From the NCBI GenBank assembly GCA_016934035.1, contig JAFGTP010000062.1, forward strand, positions 1 to 64,000: a stretch of DNA of 64,000 nucleotides, read 5' to 3'. Positions 49,609-59,257 of the stretch are shown here, piece after piece. Under the pieces are notes generated by a model that worked only from the letters and a program-made list of their open reading frames with translations, did no database searches and was not told the DNA's origin. Position 1 is the stretch's first letter; every line of letters starts with the position of its first letter. The position numbers and the translations under genes are program-made. This stretch comes from Fidelibacterota bacterium (GTDB taxonomy: Bacteria > Fidelibacterota > UBA2242 > JAFGTP01).

Positions 49609-50532
49609 ATGAACCATAGAAAAATAACAAGAAGAAATTTTGTGAAGGCTTCACTATCCATGAGCGCCCTGACTTTTGGCAGTAATTTTTGGCTGAACCC
49701 GCTGTTTGGAGCGAATAAAAACACCTTGCCGGACATAGTTGCCGTTCGCAATGGAGAACCGGATGTCATGTATCACACAGCCATAGAAGCCCTGGGTGGT
49801 ATAAAAAAATTCATAAAAAATGGACAAACCGTTCTTGTAAAGCCCAATATCGGTTGGGCACGGGAGCCGGAAAACGGGGCAAATACCAATCCACTGCTTG
49901 TTGAAACAATAGTAAAAGATGTGCTTCAGGCTGGTGCAAAAAAAGTCTATGTATTCGATCATACCTGCAATGAAAGTCAAAAATGCTACACCCTGAGCAA
50001 AATTCAAGAAAGCGCTAAAAATGCCGGTGCCATTGTCGTACCCGGAGATTTGGAAAAAGATTATGTCGATATCAAAATCCCCCAGGCTAAAATTCTCAAA
50101 GAAACCAAAATCCATCGAATATTGGCTGAAAGTGACGCAGTTATTAATGTGCCTGTACTCAAACACCATGGTTCTTCCAAAATGACCTGTGCCATGAAAA
50201 ACCTCATGGGCGTTGTCTGGGACCGTGGCTATTATCACAGGAGCGGCCTTCATCAGTGTATTGCTGATTTCTGTCTGCATACCAAACCAGTGCTAAATAT
50301 TGTTGACGGTTACAGGGTCACAATGGATAATGGCCCCCAAAGAGCCCAACCGGAAGATGTTGTGATTCGTAAAATGCTTCTGGTCTCTCAGGACATTGTT
50401 GCTGTTGATGCGGCCGTATCCAAAATTCTAAATTATGAACCCGAGCAGATTGAACACATTCTTTTCGGCCATGAAATGAAAATTGGCAATATGGACTTGA
50501 CTCAACTTCAAATTCATAGGATTGTTCTCTAA
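49609..50532 (+). CDS. Tat-exported DUF362 iron-sulfur-associated protein
   Basis: Protein of 307 aa from the ATG at 49609-49611, which has AGGA seven bases upstream (a TTG at 49585 adds eight residues but has no such site). The N-terminus carries a twin-arginine signal, TRRNFVKASLSMSALTFG, typical of periplasmic redox proteins. The body is DUF362: DIVAVRNGEPDVM, VLVKPNIGWAREPENGANTN, KHHGSSKMTCAMKNLMGVVW and a CxxxK-type segment; NMDLTQ near the end. The fold is linked to metal or cluster handling, but activity is unknown. A polyferredoxin gene lies 99 bases downstream on the same strand, so the pair is probably an electron-transfer or cluster-insertion unit. Confidence 0.85.
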   Translation: MNHRKITRRNFVKASLSMSALTFGSNFWLNPLFGANKNTLPDIVAVRNGEPDVMYHTAIEALGGIKKFIKNGQTVLVKPNIGWAREPENGANTNPLLVETIVKDVLQAGAKKVYVFDHTCNESQKCYTLSKIQESAKNAGAIVVPGDLEKDYVDIKIPQAKILKETKIHRILAESDAVINVPVLKHHGSSKMTCAMKNLMGVVWDRGYYHRSGLHQCIADFCLHTKPVLNIVDGYRVTMDNGPQRAQPEDVVIRKMLLVSQDIVAVDAAVSKILNYEPEQIEHILFGHEMKIGNMDLTQLQIHRIVL

Positions 50533-50631
50533 AAAACTATTTTATATGTCGGTTAAAACCTATTGACAAAAGTATATAATCAGGATTACATACCACTTTT
50601 TTTCGGGAGGCCTGCTTAAAAGAATATATTT

Positions 50632-52146
50632 ATGATGAAACTAAAAAGACTCAGACAAAGTATTGCAGCCACCATATTCATCTTTTTGACTCTGGCCTTT
50701 TTGGGCTTGGATTTTTTACCTCATCGCATTTACGGAGCGCTGGCCCATTTTCAACTCATACCCGGCATCGTAGGCATATTGACCGGCGCAGGACTGATGT
50801 TTGCGGTTTCTACTGTTATTATTCTCATTTTGACCTTGCTTTTCGGACGCGTTTATTGCAGCCACCTATGTCCCATGGGAATATTCCAGGACCTGCTGGC
50901 AAAGGTCTTTTTTCAAAAAAAACAACAAAAAATTCATGCATGGCAAGGGATTCTTGCAAAAATAATATTCATTCTGGTTCTGATTTTCAGTGCCATCGGT
51001 TCTCTCTGGCTGTTAAATATACTTGATCCCTATTCGCTTTTCGGAAAACTTTTTTCAACAATTTTCCGGCCGGTATTTTATATGATTAATAATTTAATTG
51101 TCAATATTTTACATCATTTTGATAACTATTCCGTTTCGGTTTTGAAATATGGACTGATTTCCGGATCTTTATTATTTTTTTCCGCTACTATGCTAGTTCT
51201 TTTCCTTGGGACGTCCTTTTATCAAAAGCGTTTCTTCTGTACCACCCTGTGTCCGGCTGGTCAGTTTTTATCTCTTTTTACAAACCACTCTCTCTTTAAA
51301 ATTCATTTGAACGGAGATAAATGTATCAATTGCTCAGCCTGTAAACGGGTCTGTAAAACTGATTGCATTGATTATAAAAACAATCAAATCGATAACAGAG
51401 CATGTGTAACCTGTTTTAATTGTATCGATAGTTGTCCCACCGGCGCCATAACTTTCAGCAGAAAAAAATTAACAACAAAATTTCAACCGGCAAGACGTGA
51501 ATGGCTGCAAAACAGCGGACTCGCTGCCACATTTTTATTACCTCTTCTCTTTAGAAAAAAAATAAAGGAAAAATGGACCCCTTCGCAACCACCTGTTATG
51601 CCGCCTGGCGCAAAAAACATTCATCATTTTACCGAGAGTTGCACCGCCTGTCAACTTTGCATCACCCACTGTCCGACAAAAGTCTTGAAACCGGCTTTCT
51701 TTCAGTACGGATTGACCGGTCTTTTTCAACCCTATCTGGATTTTGACTTTGCCTATTGTCAATATGAATGCAACACCTGCACCGATATTTGTCCAAGCGA
51801 TGCCCTACAGCCATTAAATATGGAAACCAAAAAACTCACACAACTGGGAACTGTCGAACTGAAGACAGACCTGTGTGTGGTCTATAAAAACCATACCGAC
51901 TGCGGCGCCTGTGCCGAGGGTTGTCCCACCCATGCAGTCTATACAGAAATGACTGATAATGTCAATTATCCCAAGACCCGTCTGGATATTTGTATCGGTT
52001 GTGGCGTTTGCCAAAACATGTGTCCGGTCACTCCAAAAGCAATCATTGTTCATGCCAATGAGGAACAAATCATAGCCAAAAAACCATTTCATGATGAAAA
52101 TCCCCGGCAGCCTGCCAACAGTTCCGATGATGATTTTCCTTTTTAA
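50632..52146 (+). CDS. NapH/MauM-like membrane polyferredoxin with six [4Fe-4S] motifs
   Basis: Protein of 504 aa that would carry electrons across or along the cytoplasmic membrane. Four to five helices in the first 215 residues include the NapH-type YCSHLCPMG and CTTLCPAG motifs. Six ferredoxin-type cysteine clusters follow: CINCSACKRVC, CVTCFNCIDSCP, CTACQLCITHCP, CQYECNTCTDICP (C-x3-C-x2-C-x3-C), CGACAEGCP, and CIGCGVCQNMCP. A hydrophobic helix with an upstream RREWLQNS sequence (about 282-300) separates the second and third clusters. Quinol oxidation or redox transfer to the DUF362 partner is inferred. A GGGAGG is 21 bases before the ATG pair at 50632, unusually far; TATAAT at 50575-50580 could be its -10 box. 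Confidence 0.87.
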   Translation: MMKLKRLRQSIAATIFIFLTLAFLGLDFLPHRIYGALAHFQLIPGIVGILTGAGLMFAVSTVIILILTLLFGRVYCSHLCPMGIFQDLLAKVFFQKKQQKIHAWQGILAKIIFILVLIFSAIGSLWLLNILDPYSLFGKLFSTIFRPVFYMINNLIVNILHHFDNYSVSVLKYGLISGSLLFFSATMLVLFLGTSFYQKRFFCTTLCPAGQFLSLFTNHSLFKIHLNGDKCINCSACKRVCKTDCIDYKNNQIDNRACVTCFNCIDSCPTGAITFSRKKLTTKFQPARREWLQNSGLAATFLLPLLFRKKIKEKWTPSQPPVMPPGAKNIHHFTESCTACQLCITHCPTKVLKPAFFQYGLTGLFQPYLDFDFAYCQYECNTCTDICPSDALQPLNMETKKLTQLGTVELKTDLCVVYKNHTDCGACAEGCPTHAVYTEMTDNVNYPKTRLDICIGCGVCQNMCPVTPKAIIVHANEEQIIAKKPFHDENPRQPANSSDDDFPF

Positions 52147-52301
52147 AACCATTCATTAATTCCTTCTGCCGAATCAAATTCAATTTTTAAACAGTTCACC
52201 TAAAAATTTTGACAATAATAAAGCTTCACTACTTGAAAAATAAAATTAATTTTATAACATTAATACCATTGTAGAATTTTAATAAAAATTCGGAGTATAA
52301 A

Positions 52302-53387
52302 ATGGCTATATTAGAAATTTCATTGGCTGATCAAAATCCTGTCGTTAACTATCTATCGTACAATCTAGCAGATCCAGAAATTCTCATCTGGCTGATCCCT
52401 GAAAATTACGAATACCATCTTGAGGATATTCAAAAAAAAGTTGATCCGGAAACCCGAACAGAATTCATCATGAAAAATATACCGGAGAATGATCTGCCCG
52501 GAATCCTTAATATTTGTCAAAAAATAAAAGATGAATATCCCGACCACGAAATTCACATCAATGTCACCGGTGGTAAAAAAGTGCAGGCCCTCATCATCAC
52601 CAACTTCTTCAAAGATATCGCCAAACGAATATACTATGTTGACGTGAAACATTCCCGCATTTACGACATACTCAATGGAAAAACCAATAATTATTTCTTC
52701 GATCTGACGGTCAATGAATATCTGGAAATTCAGGGAATTGCAATGGAATCAGGCCTGCGGTTTGATCCGGAGATCGGCGTCCGCAGCAATCTCTCCTACT
52801 ATATTGGCAATAATATCTATGCCCTCTCACCCTTTATCGATCAGGTCCGTGATGAATACCATCAAAATCAAGCCAGTGATAAAGATATCAAATGGGAAAT
52901 CAATAAAAAAGAAGTGCAAATGTCTGTCACCTATCAACCCGGCACATCCAAAATGCTGTTTACTTTTAGTTCCTTTGAAAATCAAAACACCATTGAAATG
53001 GACAGAGACAAAGGACTGGATTATTTTCTTCAGGGAGGCTGGTTGAGGGAACTGACTTTTCTGCGCATTCATAAAGGTACAAATTTCGATGCCCGGCTCA
53101 ATATCAAACTGGACCGCAGCACACTGCCCGAAGGAGAACACCTGGAACACCTGCTGGACATTGCCAGCATCAAGGGCAGCAGTCTTTATATTTTTCAGTG
53201 TTTTGCTTATCCCATTGATAAAAATTCTTATATAGAACTTAAAGCCATCCGCAATACCAAGAATTTGCTTCATGCTGACGCTTTTGTTATGCTGGCCCAT
53301 AAACCCAACAGAAGTTTTGTCGATCAGGCCCATACCGATGGAATTAAGATTGTCTATGGAAAGCGAATCAGCAAGTTTAATTTTTAA
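52302..53387 (+). CDS. CARF-domain protein, Card1/Can2-like (DUF1887), with degenerate nuclease motif
   Basis: Protein of 361 aa resembling Card1/Can2, effectors of type III CRISPR systems that bind cyclic oligoadenylate through a CARF domain and cut nucleic acid with a PD-(D/E)xK domain. N-terminal CARF part (about 1-150): the ligand-binding loop is INVTGGKKVQAL (86-97; the family has TGG-x-K). Middle: a linker and FTFSSF. C-terminal nuclease-like part: GGWLREL (245-251), then LLDIAS (284-289) with one likely acidic residue, then LYIFQCFAY. The place where active relatives have I-E-C-K is here F-Q-C-F (Q299, F301), so cleavage is doubtful. No cas gene or array is in the window. ATG with CGGAG seven bases before. 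Overlaps the convergent DMT gene by four bases. Confidence 0.8.
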   Translation: MAILEISLADQNPVVNYLSYNLADPEILIWLIPENYEYHLEDIQKKVDPETRTEFIMKNIPENDLPGILNICQKIKDEYPDHEIHINVTGGKKVQALIITNFFKDIAKRIYYVDVKHSRIYDILNGKTNNYFFDLTVNEYLEIQGIAMESGLRFDPEIGVRSNLSYYIGNNIYALSPFIDQVRDEYHQNQASDKDIKWEINKKEVQMSVTYQPGTSKMLFTFSSFENQNTIEMDRDKGLDYFLQGGWLRELTFLRIHKGTNFDARLNIKLDRSTLPEGEHLEHLLDIASIKGSSLYIFQCFAYPIDKNSYIELKAIRNTKNLLHADAFVMLAHKPNRSFVDQAHTDGIKIVYGKRISKFNF

Positions 53388-54244
53388 GCAAACGCAATAA
53401 TCGCAGCACCGGCAATGATGATCATACCGCCGAACAATCGCTCTTTGATATTTTGTTCCTTAAAAATAATCCATCCATATAAAATCGCAAAAAGCAGCGA
53501 GAGGCGCTTAATGGAAATCATATAGGCCACATTGATCATGCTGATGGCAGTGAAATGGGTTATCGCCATCACAGCCATAGCAATCCCGATTTTGAATTTG
53601 CCAAAACTTCGACTGAACATTTTTGAGGGGGGTGTCTTGCCAACTGTCATCACAAGTGGTGTGAAAGCCAAAGCCAGCCCGGAAAAATAAATAATCGCCA
53701 TAAACATAGGCGAAGAGTGAATAATCGCGATTTTTCCAAGGTTTGCCGTAATCGCATAGGAAAAAGAAACAATCAGCATAAACAGTGAGCCTTTGTTTCT
53801 GAATATAGCTTTGATGGGTTCCATTAATCCATATTTTGCCCTGTCAATCTGTAAGATATAGGCGCCAAAGGAAATAAAAAGAATTCCCAGCAATCCCAGC
53901 CACGATACAGTTTCACCCAAAACCAGATAACTAATCAATAAGGAAAACACTGGTGTCAGTCCCATATAGGGAATTGTCAGGGAAAGCGGAGCAATCTTGA
54001 TTGCTTTCATGTAAAGCATTGTCGTGAACAGATCCATTACCACGCAAGCCAGGATCGCCCACCAGAAAACCGCATCCACTTCAGGTATTTCAATAAAAAA
54101 CAGGAACGGTAGCATAAACGGCAAGGCATAGGCTTCCCGCACCCAACTCAGATGAATTGTCGTCATATATTTGGATTCCTGCTTGCTGAAAGCATCAGCT
54201 GTGGCAGCGGAAAATCCCGATAAGAGTGTCATCAAGTACCACAT
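53384..54244 (-). CDS. EamA/DMT-superfamily transporter
   Basis: Membrane protein of 286 aa with ten hydrophobic helices made of two repeated five-helix halves, the layout of drug/metabolite transporters (EamA). Marks: IAPLSLTIPYMGLTPVFSLL in the first half, with the following helix LGETVSWLGLLGILFISFG; the second half has IKRLSLLFAILYGWIIFKEQ. Transports amino acids, sugars or other small metabolites in characterised members; substrate here unknown. Reads toward the CARF gene and overlaps its last four bases, and shares a 115-bp divergent promoter region with the TonB-receptor gene. ATG at 54242-54244. Confidence 0.88.
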   Translation of the reverse strand: MWYLMTLLSGFSAATADAFSKQESKYMTTIHLSWVREAYALPFMLPFLFFIEIPEVDAVFWWAILACVVMDLFTTMLYMKAIKIAPLSLTIPYMGLTPVFSLLISYLVLGETVSWLGLLGILFISFGAYILQIDRAKYGLMEPIKAIFRNKGSLFMLIVSFSYAITANLGKIAIIHSSPMFMAIIYFSGLALAFTPLVMTVGKTPPSKMFSRSFGKFKIGIAMAVMAITHFTAISMINVAYMISIKRLSLLFAILYGWIIFKEQNIKERLFGGMIIIAGAAIIAFA

Positions 54245-54359: not shown

Positions 54360-56471
54360 TTGAAATCACTATTTATCTCTTTTTTCATTACTTTACTGGT
54401 AACAACAATATTTGCAGATCAAAATAAAGCCTATGAAGAACTCCGCCAAATGTCAATCTTGGAGTTAATGAATTTAAAAATCACTACTGCCGGGAAAACT
54501 TCAGAAAAGGTTAGTGATATTCCGGCTTCAGTTGTTATCATTACTCGAAATGAAATTGCCCAAAACGGCTACCAGACCTTACAGGAAATTCTGGAAAACA
54601 CCCTTGGCATGTATCCGATTAATGATTATAATGTTTTAGGAACAGACATCGGTGTCCGAGGACATAAATCGGCCAGAGCCAATGAGAATATTATTTTCCT
54701 GGTAAATGGGGTCAATCAAACCAATGATATGTATAAGAACAATCCTCTAAATCAAATCATAATTCCAGTTGAAGCAATTGATAAAATTGAAATTGTCAGA
54801 GGCCCGATGTCTGTGATTTATGGTAGTGGCGCTTTCTTTGGCGCAATTAATATTATTACCCACAGCAGTGAAAATACAAAGCCGGTCAATCTCGCATCCC
54901 TTTCCTATGGCTCTTTTAACAGCAAAAAGGCTTTTGTGCGCTTTGAAGATCATATTGCAGATTTACATCTGAGTATAAATGGCTCGCTCTATGGCGATGA
55001 TGGAATGGAAATAGTGTATGACGACATTTCAACAATCCCACCCAATATCCACGATGGCACAACCAAAAATAACATGGCGAAATTCGAGCAATATTTTAAT
55101 CTATCGGGCAAAATGAACGCAGTATATTTTGACATGAGTTATACCAATAGCAAAAACAATCCTTTTGTAAATTATCCCTTAAGCCAAAATGCGCCTGCAA
55201 TTATAACAGGAACAAGTGCCTCTTTTGGTATCCAAAAAAAGGTATCAAACTTAATAGAATTTGATGGAAAACTCAGTTTTTCCAGTTACCAGGAAGAGGT
55301 TATCAGTGATTTTTATGATAGTGATGCTTTCACTCATTACGAATTATTTAAATCCAACACCTATGAAACGGATTTGAATACCTTTATAAAACCAAAATCA
55401 GATGTTGATATTACCTGTGGAATATATTACAGATATTCTCCTGATGTTGCGATTCGAATCCATGCACCTAGCGAGGGAATGCCGGGAACTCATGCGGAAA
55501 TTACAGATGGGCAGTCCAGTCAGGCTGCATATTCACAGCTCCATTACCGGCCAACCGACAAATTACAGTTTACCGGTGGCGTGAGGGCCGAGAAAAAAAG
55601 TGGTTATTATGTGGACCTGGTTTTTAATTCCGGACCCAGCCCCTGGCTGGAAGCCTCAAAATTCCTTAAAGATGATAAAATTCATTTTATTCCGCGGTTG
55701 GCAGCAATCTATCAAATCAATCAGAACCATCATATCAAACTATTGTACGGTGAAGCCTTGAAATATGCTTCATTTCACCTCAGTATCACAAGCCTGTATA
55801 TGCCGAACCAGCCCTTATTGAATCCAGAAAATATTAAGACCTTTGAAATTAATTACCTGGGTAAATTGACCTCAAAAATTTCTACTAATATCAGTATTTT
55901 TCATAACAGGATGAACAATCTGATCAGCAGAGTATCCGGAGTCAATGAAGAAGGCCATTATTATCAATATGATTCCAATAAAGGAAAATTGAATAGCAAC
56001 GGCATAGAAGCCACCATCAATATTCAGCCTGTGGACAAGACGACATTCAAACTCTCAGGTTTGTATCAGCATACAGAAAATTTACATCAAAAAGATTTAA
56101 AACCTTCATTTTCGCCAAATTACTTGGGTTATTTTCAGGCATCCTATAGTCCTAAAAAAAACACAATCATGTCATTAACAGGACGGTATGTCAGTAAAAT
56201 GCAACCCTATTGGGATATCTCCAGAACCCAAAATGATCCTGACCAATTATCAGCAGGTTTTATAGGCGATGAAATCGAGGGCTATTTTATCCTGAATGGA
56301 AATCTCCGGTTCAACGACCTTTTAAAATATGGGTTATTTATAAATTTTAAAGTCAGCAACCTGCTGGATACAGAATTCCGATATCCAACCACATCGGAAG
56401 TCAGTTGGGCAGACAAAGGATACCTGGGGCCGGGAAGAACATTTTTGATAAGTCTTGGAAGGGAATTTTGA
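54360..56471 (+). CDS. TonB-dependent outer-membrane receptor
   Basis: Outer-membrane gated channel of 703 aa. A signal peptide (about 1-20, LFISFFITLLVTTIFA) is followed by an N-terminal segment, then the plug domain: SILELMNLKITTAGK, DIPASVVIITRNEI, DKIEIVRGPMSVIYGSGAFF and INIITHSS. The rest is a 22-strand barrel that ends with the aromatic TFLISLGREF. It lacks the carboxypeptidase-like domain of SusC, and no SusD gene follows, so it resembles siderophore/vitamin or metal receptors more than glycan ones. The start is TTG at 54360-54362 behind GGAG. TATAAT at 54321-54326 is a possible -10 box. Its TGA overlaps the start of the next gene (TTGA), so the two proteins are probably coupled. Substrate unknown. 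Confidence 0.92.
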   Translation: MKSLFISFFITLLVTTIFADQNKAYEELRQMSILELMNLKITTAGKTSEKVSDIPASVVIITRNEIAQNGYQTLQEILENTLGMYPINDYNVLGTDIGVRGHKSARANENIIFLVNGVNQTNDMYKNNPLNQIIIPVEAIDKIEIVRGPMSVIYGSGAFFGAINIITHSSENTKPVNLASLSYGSFNSKKAFVRFEDHIADLHLSINGSLYGDDGMEIVYDDISTIPPNIHDGTTKNNMAKFEQYFNLSGKMNAVYFDMSYTNSKNNPFVNYPLSQNAPAIITGTSASFGIQKKVSNLIEFDGKLSFSSYQEEVISDFYDSDAFTHYELFKSNTYETDLNTFIKPKSDVDITCGIYYRYSPDVAIRIHAPSEGMPGTHAEITDGQSSQAAYSQLHYRPTDKLQFTGGVRAEKKSGYYVDLVFNSGPSPWLEASKFLKDDKIHFIPRLAAIYQINQNHHIKLLYGEALKYASFHLSITSLYMPNQPLLNPENIKTFEINYLGKLTSKISTNISIFHNRMNNLISRVSGVNEEGHYYQYDSNKGKLNSNGIEATINIQPVDKTTFKLSGLYQHTENLHQKDLKPSFSPNYLGYFQASYSPKKNTIMSLTGRYVSKMQPYWDISRTQNDPDQLSAGFIGDEIEGYFILNGNLRFNDLLKYGLFINFKVSNLLDTEFRYPTTSEVSWADKGYLGPGRTFLISLGREF

Positions 56472-59257
56472 AAAAGCTACTCCTCATTTTCTTATTCATG
56501 AAATTCCTCATGGCACAGGACCCATCTGATATTCATTGGAAACAGATCCAAAGCGATCAATACACTCTCATATTTCCTGAGGAAATCTCACAACATGCTA
56601 TCAGGATTGCCAATCGTCTGGAATATATCAGTCCTAAGATCGGCTTTTATCTCCAGGATGAACACCAGCCTTTATCATTGATATTATCCAACCGAAGTGT
56701 CTGGTCAAATGGTTATGTCACCATGTTTCCCTACAAATCGGAATGGTATTCCCTTCCCTACACCGGCAAATCCATATTCATTGGTGACTGGCACAATATG
56801 TTATCATTGCATGAAACACGACATGTTCACCAATATACTTATCTGAACCACGGCTTGATTAAATTTTCCGGATTTCTCTTCGGTGACTATGGCCGTGGCA
56901 TTGCTATGAATATCATGATTCCCGATTGGTACAAAGAAGGTGACGCTGTATTGACCGAAACCCTCTGGTCTTATTCCGGCCGGGGACGAATTGCCAACTT
57001 CCAACAATGTTACCGCACAATTCTGCTCACAGAACCAAATCTGAAATATGAAACAGCACGGTTTGGCAGTTACAAGCGCCCCACACCCGATGACTATGAA
57101 CTCGGCTATTTTATGACAGCATTTCTGGCAAGAAAATATGGTTATGAAGCATGGAGCGGGATTTTAAAAAGCGCCACATGGTTATCCTTTAAGAATCCCA
57201 TATCGCCAATGAGCGCTGCCATTGAAAAATATACTGACTATGAAGGCACAAAAAAATTGTTTTACAGTATGCAGGTGGAACTGAAAGAGATTTGGTTTAA
57301 GCAGGATGAAGGAATAAAGTCTGACAGCCTTTTCCATTACAGGTCTGCCAAAGATAAACATTTCACCGATCATGTTCTTCCCTACAAAGACCAAAAGGGA
57401 ATCTTATATTATCTAAAGTCCAGCAATGCCTTCGGAACAGCGGTTTATTGTGAAAACAAAAAAATTATCAACGTACCACACTATGTTGCAACGTATGGAT
57501 TGGATATTCGCAATGAAAAAATCATCTGGTCACAATATCGAGAGGATAAAAGATGGGACAAGCAGAGCTGGTTAGACATAGCAATATTTAACATAAAGAA
57601 TAGGGAACTGAAAATCCTGACGAAAAACCGCCGATACTTTTGCCCATCAATATCTTCTGATGGCACAAAGATCGCCGCTGTTGAATTCACAGACACCCGA
57701 CAATGCAATATTGTGATTATTGAGGCCAATAGTGGTGAATTGATCCAGAAAATACATTCTCCGGATAATGAAATGGTCCATTATCCAACCTGGTCGTCAG
57801 ATGATCAGCAATTGGTCTTTACATCAACAGGGTATAAAGGACGAGCAATAAATGAATTGAATCTGGATAATCATATTTTTACGCAATTAACCAACTACAC
57901 CCATGAAGACCTTTTCCGTCCAAAATACTGGAATAATTATATTATCTTTGAATCAGGATTTTCAGGTCTTGATAATATCTATGCTTTGGATAGAAATACA
58001 AAGCAGATTTATCAGGTCACATCAAGACAATATGGGGCAGCCTATCCGACCATTTACAAGGATAGATTACTTTTCAGTGATTACACACCAAAGGGTTATA
58101 AAATTTCAGAAATGCTATTAACCGAAATGAACTTTATCCCGATCCATCAAATTTCGTTGACCAGAACAGATTATTTTCAGCCATTGTTGACGGATGAATT
58201 TCAACCCATCGAAGAGAAGGACATTCCACAGAAGCAACACAAAATTACTGATTACAAAGGATTGGGCAGCATGTGCAATCCCCATAGCTATTCCCCGCTA
58301 ATTACACCTTTTTTCTATGGTGGAATCCTTCGGTCCGATAATCTTTTGGAAACTCATTCCCAAACCCTTTATTTCCTGAAAGCTATTGACGACGAAGAAT
58401 ACATTGGCGGATTTCACTTCGATTACCTGGGAATCTACCCAAAAATCAGCACCAGGATGACCTTTGCCAATCGAACTGAATCAAATATTGAAAATGATCC
58501 CTTCATAATTAAAGACTCCTGGAAGGAACTGGAATTTTCGCTCAATACAGAATGGCCGTTATTCAGAACAGACAAAGGTGTACAGACCTCCATTTCGAAT
58601 GCAAATATTGGTGCCGGATACAAATACATTTTCAATCGGGAAGTGCTTTGGGACCCTGCAAGTTCCTATTTCCACAACTTTGATGACCAATTTACAGTAC
58701 CATTATATTTTTCTATAAATGGGCTTACCATCAGACAAAAATCTCTGCAGGCCCTGGTTCCGACCTACTCCCAGTTGACAATCTACAGCAATCATACCGT
58801 TGGCAATGCATCAATGGAAGGCACCCAGTCAGGCTGGCAATTCAAGCAGGGAATTGACCTTGGCTATGCTTTTGGAATGACGCTGGATGTGATGTATGAG
58901 TACAACAAAGACAAAGGTTACTCATTCAAAAGACAATTTGAACCCATGCCGGTATTTGATGATTTTGACAGCAACACCCAGACTAAACTCCTCTTCATCC
59001 TCAAACGCCATCTTTGGTTTCCGGATATTGATTTTTTCTGGCTGGTTTATGTGAAACGGTTTTCCATGTCATTGCTCTATGAAAGCTACGGTAACTTTTT
59101 TTGCAGCAACATAGACAATCAATGCGCCCTGGGTATTGGACTGACAACGGAAATCGGCGGAATTGCAACCATCCGGACCAATTTTCCTGTCACCCTGTTT
59201 TACTATATTAACATTGAATCAAAGGAAAAAGGAGTAAGGTTTTCACTCGAAATATGA
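56468..59257 (+). CDS. Gluzincin-like protease / TolB-propeller / outer-membrane barrel fusion protein
   Basis: Protein of 929 aa from the TTG at 56468-56470, which overlaps the receptor stop and has GGAAGG upstream; an upstream ATG (56405) would lie inside the receptor gene. Signal peptide LLLIFLFMKFLMA. N-terminal domain with the zinc-peptidase motif HETRH (115-119) and, about 40 residues on, DWYKEGDAVLTET, matching the gluzincin third ligand region. Middle (about 300-600): TolB/WD40-type repeats such as CPSISSDGTKIAA, YPTWSSDDQQLVFTS and FRPKYWNN. C-terminal about 250 residues: alternating amphipathic strands ending in VRFSLEI, like an outer-membrane barrel. Such proteins are common in FCB bacteria but their role is not established; here it may process the receptor or its cargo. 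Confidence 0.78.
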   Translation: MKKLLLIFLFMKFLMAQDPSDIHWKQIQSDQYTLIFPEEISQHAIRIANRLEYISPKIGFYLQDEHQPLSLILSNRSVWSNGYVTMFPYKSEWYSLPYTGKSIFIGDWHNMLSLHETRHVHQYTYLNHGLIKFSGFLFGDYGRGIAMNIMIPDWYKEGDAVLTETLWSYSGRGRIANFQQCYRTILLTEPNLKYETARFGSYKRPTPDDYELGYFMTAFLARKYGYEAWSGILKSATWLSFKNPISPMSAAIEKYTDYEGTKKLFYSMQVELKEIWFKQDEGIKSDSLFHYRSAKDKHFTDHVLPYKDQKGILYYLKSSNAFGTAVYCENKKIINVPHYVATYGLDIRNEKIIWSQYREDKRWDKQSWLDIAIFNIKNRELKILTKNRRYFCPSISSDGTKIAAVEFTDTRQCNIVIIEANSGELIQKIHSPDNEMVHYPTWSSDDQQLVFTSTGYKGRAINELNLDNHIFTQLTNYTHEDLFRPKYWNNYIIFESGFSGLDNIYALDRNTKQIYQVTSRQYGAAYPTIYKDRLLFSDYTPKGYKISEMLLTEMNFIPIHQISLTRTDYFQPLLTDEFQPIEEKDIPQKQHKITDYKGLGSMCNPHSYSPLITPFFYGGILRSDNLLETHSQTLYFLKAIDDEEYIGGFHFDYLGIYPKISTRMTFANRTESNIENDPFIIKDSWKELEFSLNTEWPLFRTDKGVQTSISNANIGAGYKYIFNREVLWDPASSYFHNFDDQFTVPLYFSINGLTIRQKSLQALVPTYSQLTIYSNHTVGNASMEGTQSGWQFKQGIDLGYAFGMTLDVMYEYNKDKGYSFKRQFEPMPVFDDFDSNTQTKLLFILKRHLWFPDIDFFWLVYVKRFSMSLLYESYGNFFCSNIDNQCALGIGLTTEIGGIATIRTNFPVTLFYYINIESKEKGVRFSLEI

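What the first reader, a model, noticed from the sequence alone, without database searches (positions are those of the whole stretch)
52302..53387. Solitary CARF/Card1-like protein with a changed nuclease motif and no CRISPR neighbours
The protein has the CARF ligand loop (INVTGGKKVQAL) and the DUF1887-type GGW segment of Card1/Can2, but where active nucleases have I-E-C-K it has F-Q-C-F, keeping only one plausible acidic residue (D286). No cas gene, repeat array or cyclic-nucleotide synthase lies in the window. It could be a catalytically dead sensor, a sponge for cyclic oligoadenylate, or part of a different, undescribed signalling system.
Basis: partly seen in the sequence, partly recalled or inferred. 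Interest (0 to 1): 0.75.

Follow-up and report, generated by a model that had tools for sequence, protein, structure and literature searches.

The report
Order-wide CARF sensor with rebuilt nuclease
A protein built like the Card1/Can2 CRISPR nucleases, but with its cutting site replaced by a different and strictly conserved set of residues, is kept as one copy in essentially every member of one order of uncultured bacteria, mostly without the CRISPR system that switches its relatives on, so it probably belongs to a separate, undescribed signalling role.

Summary
Window 52302-53387 (+) encodes a 361-aa CARF + PD-(D/E)xK-fold protein. The published catalytic set E-x-D...E-x-K of Can1/Can2/VC1899 reads L284-x-D286...Q299-C300-F301, and a Glu shared by Card1, Can2 and VC1899 in the preceding helix is R249.

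It is not a strain mutation. Full-length or split orthologues occur in 21 of 23 genomes of one order of Candidatus Neomarinimicrobiota. In the other two the contig ends before the expected site. Q-C-F is present in every orthologue; R249, E250, D263, R265, E282, D286 and H333 are invariant in the 20 full-length ones. dN/dS is 0.06-0.15, and the nuclease-like core is the best-conserved part.

The "no CRISPR" remark is true for the window, not the genome: another contig carries a type III-D locus with a GGDD Cas10 and two CARF proteins of its own. Across the order, however, Cas10 appears in only 5 of 23 genomes and RAMPs in 9; six carriers at least 90% complete lack Cas1, Cas10 and RAMPs.

Best reading: a CRISPR-independent, vertically inherited CARF sensor whose nuclease domain became a ligand-gated nucleic-acid-binding domain, or less likely a rewired enzyme. 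Ligand and target are unknown. New variant of a known kind.

The parts
52302..53387 (+). CARF + PD-(D/E)xK-fold protein, 361 aa, with Q299-C300-F301 in place of E-x-K
52302..52730 (+). CARF domain (about residues 1-143): loop D10-x-x-P13 and N87-x-T-G-G-x-K93 ligand loops
   Evidence: Pfam CARF_Card1 52-140; profile alignment to Can2 15-161 and VC1899; column counts
52731..53021 (+). middle segment (residues 144-240) with invariant D155-P-x-I-G-x-R161-S
   Evidence: alignment
53022..53384 (+). nuclease-like core (residues 241-361), best-conserved part of the protein; R249, E250, D263, R265, E282, D286, Q299, C300, F301, H333 invariant in 20 full-length orthologues
53196..53204 (+). Q299-C300-F301 codons (cag tgt ttt), the place of E-x-K
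   Evidence: sequence, alignment to VC1899 and Card1
52292..52295 (+). GGAG ribosome-binding-site-like sequence
   Evidence: read from sequence
53384..54244 (-). convergent EamA/DMT-family transporter gene whose stop overlaps the CARF gene's stop; the neighbour in 18 of 21 loci across four families (functional link not shown)

Best explanation
It is an order-specific, vertically inherited, single-copy member of the DUF1887/CARF4 (Can2-VC1899-like) superfamily that has left the CRISPR world. Shown: the sequence family and predicted fold, the loss of the canonical E-x-D/E-x-K site, the fixed replacement residues, strong purifying selection, near-universal presence in the order, and presence in genomes without detectable type III CRISPR. 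Inferred: it works as a homodimer like its relatives. The CARF pair binds a small nucleotide-type ligand that is not necessarily cyclic oligoadenylate and need not come from Cas10. Binding changes the cleft between the two nuclease-like domains. Those domains no longer cut by the metal-dependent mechanism; through a conserved basic set (R249, R255, R265, K/R/H307, H333, K/R/H334, R337) they bind a nucleic acid or another phosphate-bearing partner. In short, a ligand-gated binding switch in ordinary cell physiology or stress sensing rather than a suicide nuclease.
For: Fold and homology. Distribution: 21 of 23 genomes of the order, one locus each (split across two contigs in G017), none in about 220 other genomes of the phylum, no hits in plasmids, phages or viral contigs; the two absences fall at contig ends. 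The gene tree needs only the minimum 3 changes for family labels, so it fits vertical descent. dN/dS 0.06-0.15; nuclease-like core 22/121 invariant positions against 6/143 in the CARF part. Q-C-F in all 21 rows. 16 of the 20 columns that are at least 90% basic lie at residue 153 or beyond. Decoupling from CRISPR: PF22335 in 5/23, RAMPs in 9/23, Cas1 in 9/23; G002, G004, G010, G012, G018 and G019 (at least 90% complete) carry the gene and none of these. [quoted passage not shown] VC1899 is an orphan not regulated by cA4 (PMC7969007), and its D9-Q-D-P loop resembles D10-Q-N-P here.
Against: No ligand, nucleic-acid binding or dimer was tested. The invariant residues include four acids (E250, D263, E282, D286), Q299, C300 and H333, which is as compatible with a new active site as with a binding surface. 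The model's coordinates could not be inspected, so the spatial grouping of these residues is unverified. Absence of Cas10 rests on incomplete MAGs, and CRISPR loci assemble poorly. The closest relatives with known function are CRISPR effectors.
Confidence: 0.45

Rival explanations
1. Rewired enzyme: the PD-(D/E)xK fold keeps catalysis with migrated residues (for example D263/E282/D286 with Q299, R249 and H333, or a C300/H333-based chemistry), so it is an active nuclease or phosphodiesterase of unusual site.
For: Density of invariant charged or polar residues in the core; E282 keeps strand parity with D286 (i-4 instead of the canonical i-2), as if the lost acid had moved; strongest constraint on this domain.
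Against: Both E-x-K residues gone, K replaced by Phe, helix Glu replaced by Arg; no alternative E-x-K seen. Such swaps normally abolish metal-dependent catalysis (general knowledge of the fold).
Confidence: 0.25
2. Catalytically dead accessory of type III CRISPR: a cOA sponge, ring nuclease or dominant-negative partner that dampens signalling by Cas10.
For: CARF fold and N-x-T-G-G-x-K/R loop; own genome has a GGDD Cas10 with two other CARF proteins on C68; many ring nucleases possess CARF domains (PMC12669027).
Against: Gene fixed in the order, Cas10 in 5/23 and RAMPs in 9/23; no cas-type neighbour among the conserved genes at these loci; conservation lies in the nuclease-like domain, not the CARF part; Ser19 of Can2 is Asp/Asn here.
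Confidence: 0.12
3. Functional partner of the convergent EamA-family transporter: the CARF protein senses the nucleotide-like cargo or regulates the transporter.
For: Tail-to-tail pair kept in 18/21 loci across four families while the other flank changes.
Against: Convergent genes are seldom a functional unit; the two are on different contigs in G012 and G003; the stop overlap and low rearrangement could keep them together.
Confidence: 0.08
4. Decaying relic or single-strain mutation of a Card1-type nuclease.
For: Loss of catalytic residues.
Against: Same replacements in all orthologues, dN/dS 0.06-0.15, no internal stops in any.
Confidence: 0.01

Closest known systems
VC1899 of Vibrio cholerae (DUF1887, PDB 1XMX)
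   Same: Full-length profile match (E 2.2e-8, residues 5-350) and full-length fold match; D-x-x-P first CARF loop; orphan outside CRISPR, not regulated by cA4 (PMC7969007).
   Different: VC1899 keeps E291/D293 and E-C-K; here L284/D286 and Q-C-F. Whether VC1899 is a fixed core gene in its own group was not tested here.
Can2 / Card1 (cA4-activated PD-D/ExK nucleases of type III CRISPR)
   Same: CARF + nuclease fold over the whole length; PADLOC CARF4 CARF_PDDEXK in 20/20 members.
   Different: Active site lost in a fixed way; cA4-contact positions only partly kept; no cas neighbours; vertical, order-wide.
Nuclease-like domain of Can1
   Same: Same fold without canonical active-site residues; basic residues thought to bind DNA (PMC6981274).
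   Different: In Can1 it is one half of a fused protein beside an active nuclease; here no active partner is known.
RtcR (CARF-containing regulator of RNA repair)
   Same: A CARF protein working outside CRISPR (PMC9650030 and PMC7790460, abstracts).
   Different: RtcR has AAA+ and HTH domains and a divergent CARF (PMC4012209); none of that here.
CARF4-PDDEXK protein of the own genome's type III-D locus (L074:7666-8934)
   Same: Same broad CARF4 family.
   Different: Sits beside Cas10 and keeps the helix Glu and P-E-I-D; not detected by the A1 profile in the 17-kb locus.

Membership tests
Can2/Card1 (cA4-activated CARF nuclease) | N-terminal CARF domain | tested here: met
   Pfam CARF_Card1 E 2.9e-9 over cut-off
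Can2/Card1 (cA4-activated CARF nuclease) | C-terminal PD-(D/E)xK fold, overall Can2 architecture | tested here: met
   Foldseek full-length matches 8bao, 7bdv, 1xmx, 6wxw
Can2/Card1 (cA4-activated CARF nuclease) | Catalytic E-x-D ... E-x-K | tested here: not met
   L284-x-D286 ... Q299-C-F301 in alignment to VC1899/Card1/Can2; fixed in the family
Can2/Card1 (cA4-activated CARF nuclease) | cA4 contacts Ser19, Thr42, Lys99, Tyr118 (SthCan2) | tested here: inconclusive
   Equivalents are D/N at 10, variable at 33 (T in 9/20), K/R/Q at 93, and mixed aromatic/aliphatic at 112; binding not testable
Can2/Card1 (cA4-activated CARF nuclease) | Association with type III CRISPR | tested here: not met
   Gene in 21/23 genomes, Cas10 in 5/23, RAMPs in 9/23; conserved neighbours are not cas genes
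Can2/Card1 (cA4-activated CARF nuclease) | cA4-dependent DNase/RNase activity | not testable with these tools
   needs purified protein
VC1899-type orphan DUF1887 | No CRISPR association | tested here: met
VC1899-type orphan DUF1887 | Intact nuclease residues (Glu291/Asp293, E-C-K) | tested here: not met
CARF4 CARF_PDDEXK class (PADLOC grouping) | Sequence match to class profiles | tested here: met
   PDLC01880 matches 20/20 members, best E 1.9e-34
CARF ring nuclease | cOA degradation in the CARF pocket | not testable with these tools
   needs enzyme assay
RtcR-like regulator | AAA+ and HTH domains after the CARF | tested here: not met
   only CARF_Card1, Card1_endonuc and (weakly) Cas_NE0113 match; model shows the nuclease-like fold

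The most novel reading that the evidence does not exclude
A CRISPR-independent CARF signalling pathway that is part of the core genome of a bacterial order: an unknown nucleotide second messenger or RNA-damage product is sensed by a CARF dimer and passed to a nuclease-fold domain rebuilt, with a new invariant residue set (R249/E250/D263/R265/E282/D286/Q299-C-F/H333), into a regulated nucleic-acid binder or an enzyme of new chemistry.
Probability: 0.4. Interest if true: 0.78.

Novelty: new variant of a known kind. Interest (0 to 1): 0.57.

Why it matters
CARF domains are known almost only as patchily distributed sensors of CRISPR signalling. A CARF protein fixed by descent in a whole order, under purifying selection, without a matching Cas10 and with its nuclease site exchanged for another conserved set, suggests that CARF sensing has a stable cellular role and a ligand source still to be found. 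It makes the old question 'what do orphan CARF proteins such as VC1899 sense?' testable on a family with a clear conservation pattern. It also warns against counting every CARF4 hit as an active CRISPR nuclease.

Tried and rejected
Single-protein scans of genome contigs and viral contigs found nothing; the alignment-based scan then found only Neomarinimicrobiota. Relic/single-strain mutation: rejected by conservation and dN/dS. True absence in G008 and G016: not supported, since the contigs end about 250 and 305 bases past the last gene before the expected site. Universal Csm1 (TIGR02578) hits of about 520-aa frames over model positions 7-108: set aside as the HD domain of an RNase Y-like protein (inference from size and universality), not Cas10; a partial frame beside Cas1 in G009 (C98) could be Cas10 or Cas3, so G009 is not counted as CRISPR-free. 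CD-NTase (SMODS) as a universal alternative messenger source: in only 2 genomes, one of them lacking the CARF gene in its assembly. The ribosomal operon upstream in family f4 was identified from gene sizes and order, with L17 by sequence; the link is absent in the window's own genome, so it is taken as synteny, not function. BFVD structure search gave no full-length viral relative. The 2020 CARF classification paper and the Card1 paper were not held.

Full report
What is there. The ORF 52302-53387 (+) encodes 361 aa with an ATG and a GGAG a few bases upstream. It is a real CARF + nuclease-fold protein: Pfam CARF_Card1 E 2.9e-9, Card1_endonuc 1.9e-4 (below that model's cut-off); PADLOC CARF4 CARF_PDDEXK 4.5e-26 over residues 6-358. 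The AlphaFold2 model (best pLDDT 85.9, pTM 0.81; the other four models 68-78) matches Can2 (8bao, 7bdv), VC1899 (1xmx), Cdn1 and Card1 over the full length.

The changed site. Published active-site residues are Glu541, Asp543, Glu560 and Lys562 in Can1, overlapping those of VC1899 (PMC6981274), and Glu276/Asp278 in SthCan2 (PMC7969007). The profile alignments to VC1899 and Card1 put L284, D286, Q299 and F301 at these places. In addition the W-[LF]-E glutamate common to Card1, Can2 and VC1899 in the preceding helix is R249. So one of four published catalytic residues is kept. A distant relative in another family of the phylum (G049, L139) still has the Glu in the helix, N-E-I-D and E-C-K, which shows what the unaltered form looks like.

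Not a mutation of one strain. Searching genomes of the phylum found orthologues in 20 of 22 other genomes of the order and in none of the roughly 220 genomes outside it at E <= 0.001. The family profile adds only three weak partial matches outside the order. Plasmids, phages and viral contigs gave nothing. In all 21 rows the site is Q-C-F. In the 20 full-length rows R249, E250, R255, D263, R265, E282, D286, Q299, C300, F301, P304, S309 and H333 are invariant. dN/dS of close pairs is 0.06-0.15. The nuclease-like core has 22 invariant positions of 121; the CARF part only 6 of 143. Sixteen of the twenty columns that are at least 90% basic lie at residue 153 or beyond.

Vertical inheritance. The gene is single-copy per genome (in G017 split over two contig ends). 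The gene tree needs the minimum of three changes for the four family labels. The two genomes without a hit, G008 and G016, have contigs that end about 250 and 305 bases after the last gene before the place where it lies in relatives, and they also lack the neighbouring EamA gene in their assemblies, so the absence may be only a gap.

Neighbourhood. Eighteen of 21 loci have a convergent EamA-family gene directly downstream, across four families, although the upstream flank differs. In G012 and G003 the EamA orthologue is on another contig. In the window the two stop codons overlap. In family f4 the gene lies downstream of what gene sizes and order show to be the ribosomal alpha operon; the L17 gene is recognisable by sequence in G016. 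In several f4 genomes a GHL10 gene, two ATP-grasp ligases, a GNAT and a lysine-2,3-aminomutase-like gene lie between. None of this is shown to be functional.

CRISPR. But the same genome has, on contig C68, a type III-D locus with Cas10d (I-I-G-G-D-D motif), Cas5, Cas7 and Csx19 genes and two CARF proteins, and on C33 Cas1 beside an array of about 47 repeats. Across the order Cas10 (PF22335) is found in 5 of 23 genomes, RAMPs in 9 and Cas1 in 9. Six carriers that are at least 90% complete (G002, G004, G010, G012, G018, G019) show none of the three. CD-NTases are in two genomes only. Therefore, as far as these assemblies show, neither Cas10 nor CBASS synthases can be the common source of a ligand.

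Ligand pocket. Of the four cA4-contact residues of Can2 (Ser19, Thr42, Lys99, Tyr118; PMC7969007), the family has Asp/Asn at the first place, mixed residues at the second (Thr in 9 of 20), Lys/Arg/Gln at the third, and mostly aromatic or aliphatic residues at the fourth. The first loop D10-x-x-P13 resembles VC1899's D9-Q-D-P, the orphan that does not respond to cA4. The N-x-[ST]-G-G loop is kept in most but not all rows (N-L-S-G-Y, N-L-S-G-D, N-A-T-C-G). This points to a CARF pocket that still binds something, not clearly cOA. It is inference.

Mechanism. The evidence fits best with a CARF sensor whose nuclease domain has been turned into a regulated binding domain; Can1 offers a published precedent of a nuclease-like domain without active-site residues whose arginines matter for activity. 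A rewired active site is the main rival, because invariant acids, Gln, Cys and His remain in the same domain. A CRISPR sponge or ring nuclease is less likely given the distribution. Nothing here was tested at the bench.

Verdict. Observation confirmed, interpretation partly supported: a new, order-specific, CRISPR-independent variant of the DUF1887/CARF4 kind.

Noticed in passing
L074:6521-16405 (own genome, contig C68:76520-86404): Complete-looking type III-D locus with GGDD Cas10d, Csx19, Cas5/Cas7 and two CARF genes (CARF5 and CARF4-PDDEXK) in the window's own genome.
   Followed up: partly
L074:7666-8934: The CARF4 protein of that locus keeps the helix Glu and P-E-I-D but has G-T-S-C-T-T where E-x-K is expected; a second, different departure from E-x-K within CARF4, possibly with catalytic residues migrated into the following helix.
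   Followed up: no
L075:1-3000 (own genome, contig C33): CRISPR array of about 47 repeats (GTTTCAATTCCTCATAGGTAGAATCAGAAT) near Cas1.
   Followed up: no
window 49612-52146: DUF362 protein followed by a NapH-like membrane 4Fe-4S ferredoxin (at least five Fer4 stretches), directly upstream of the CARF gene; no evident link.
   Followed up: no
window 54360-59257: TonB-dependent receptor overlapping a 950-aa protein with a PD40 propeller repeat; looks like an outer-membrane uptake pair.
   Followed up: no
L024:265-7316 and equivalents (L025, L031, L032, L036): In one family of the order the CARF gene sits downstream of the ribosomal alpha operon followed by a GHL10 glycosidase-like gene.
   Followed up: partly
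L123 (G005:C5:23889-24299): CD-NTase-like (SMODS) frame interrupted by a TGA.
   Followed up: no
G000 contig C34:37906-38136 and one place in most genomes of the order: Weak Csm1/Cas10-model hits to HD domains of about 520-aa proteins (likely RNase Y); they could be mistaken for Cas10.
   Followed up: partly
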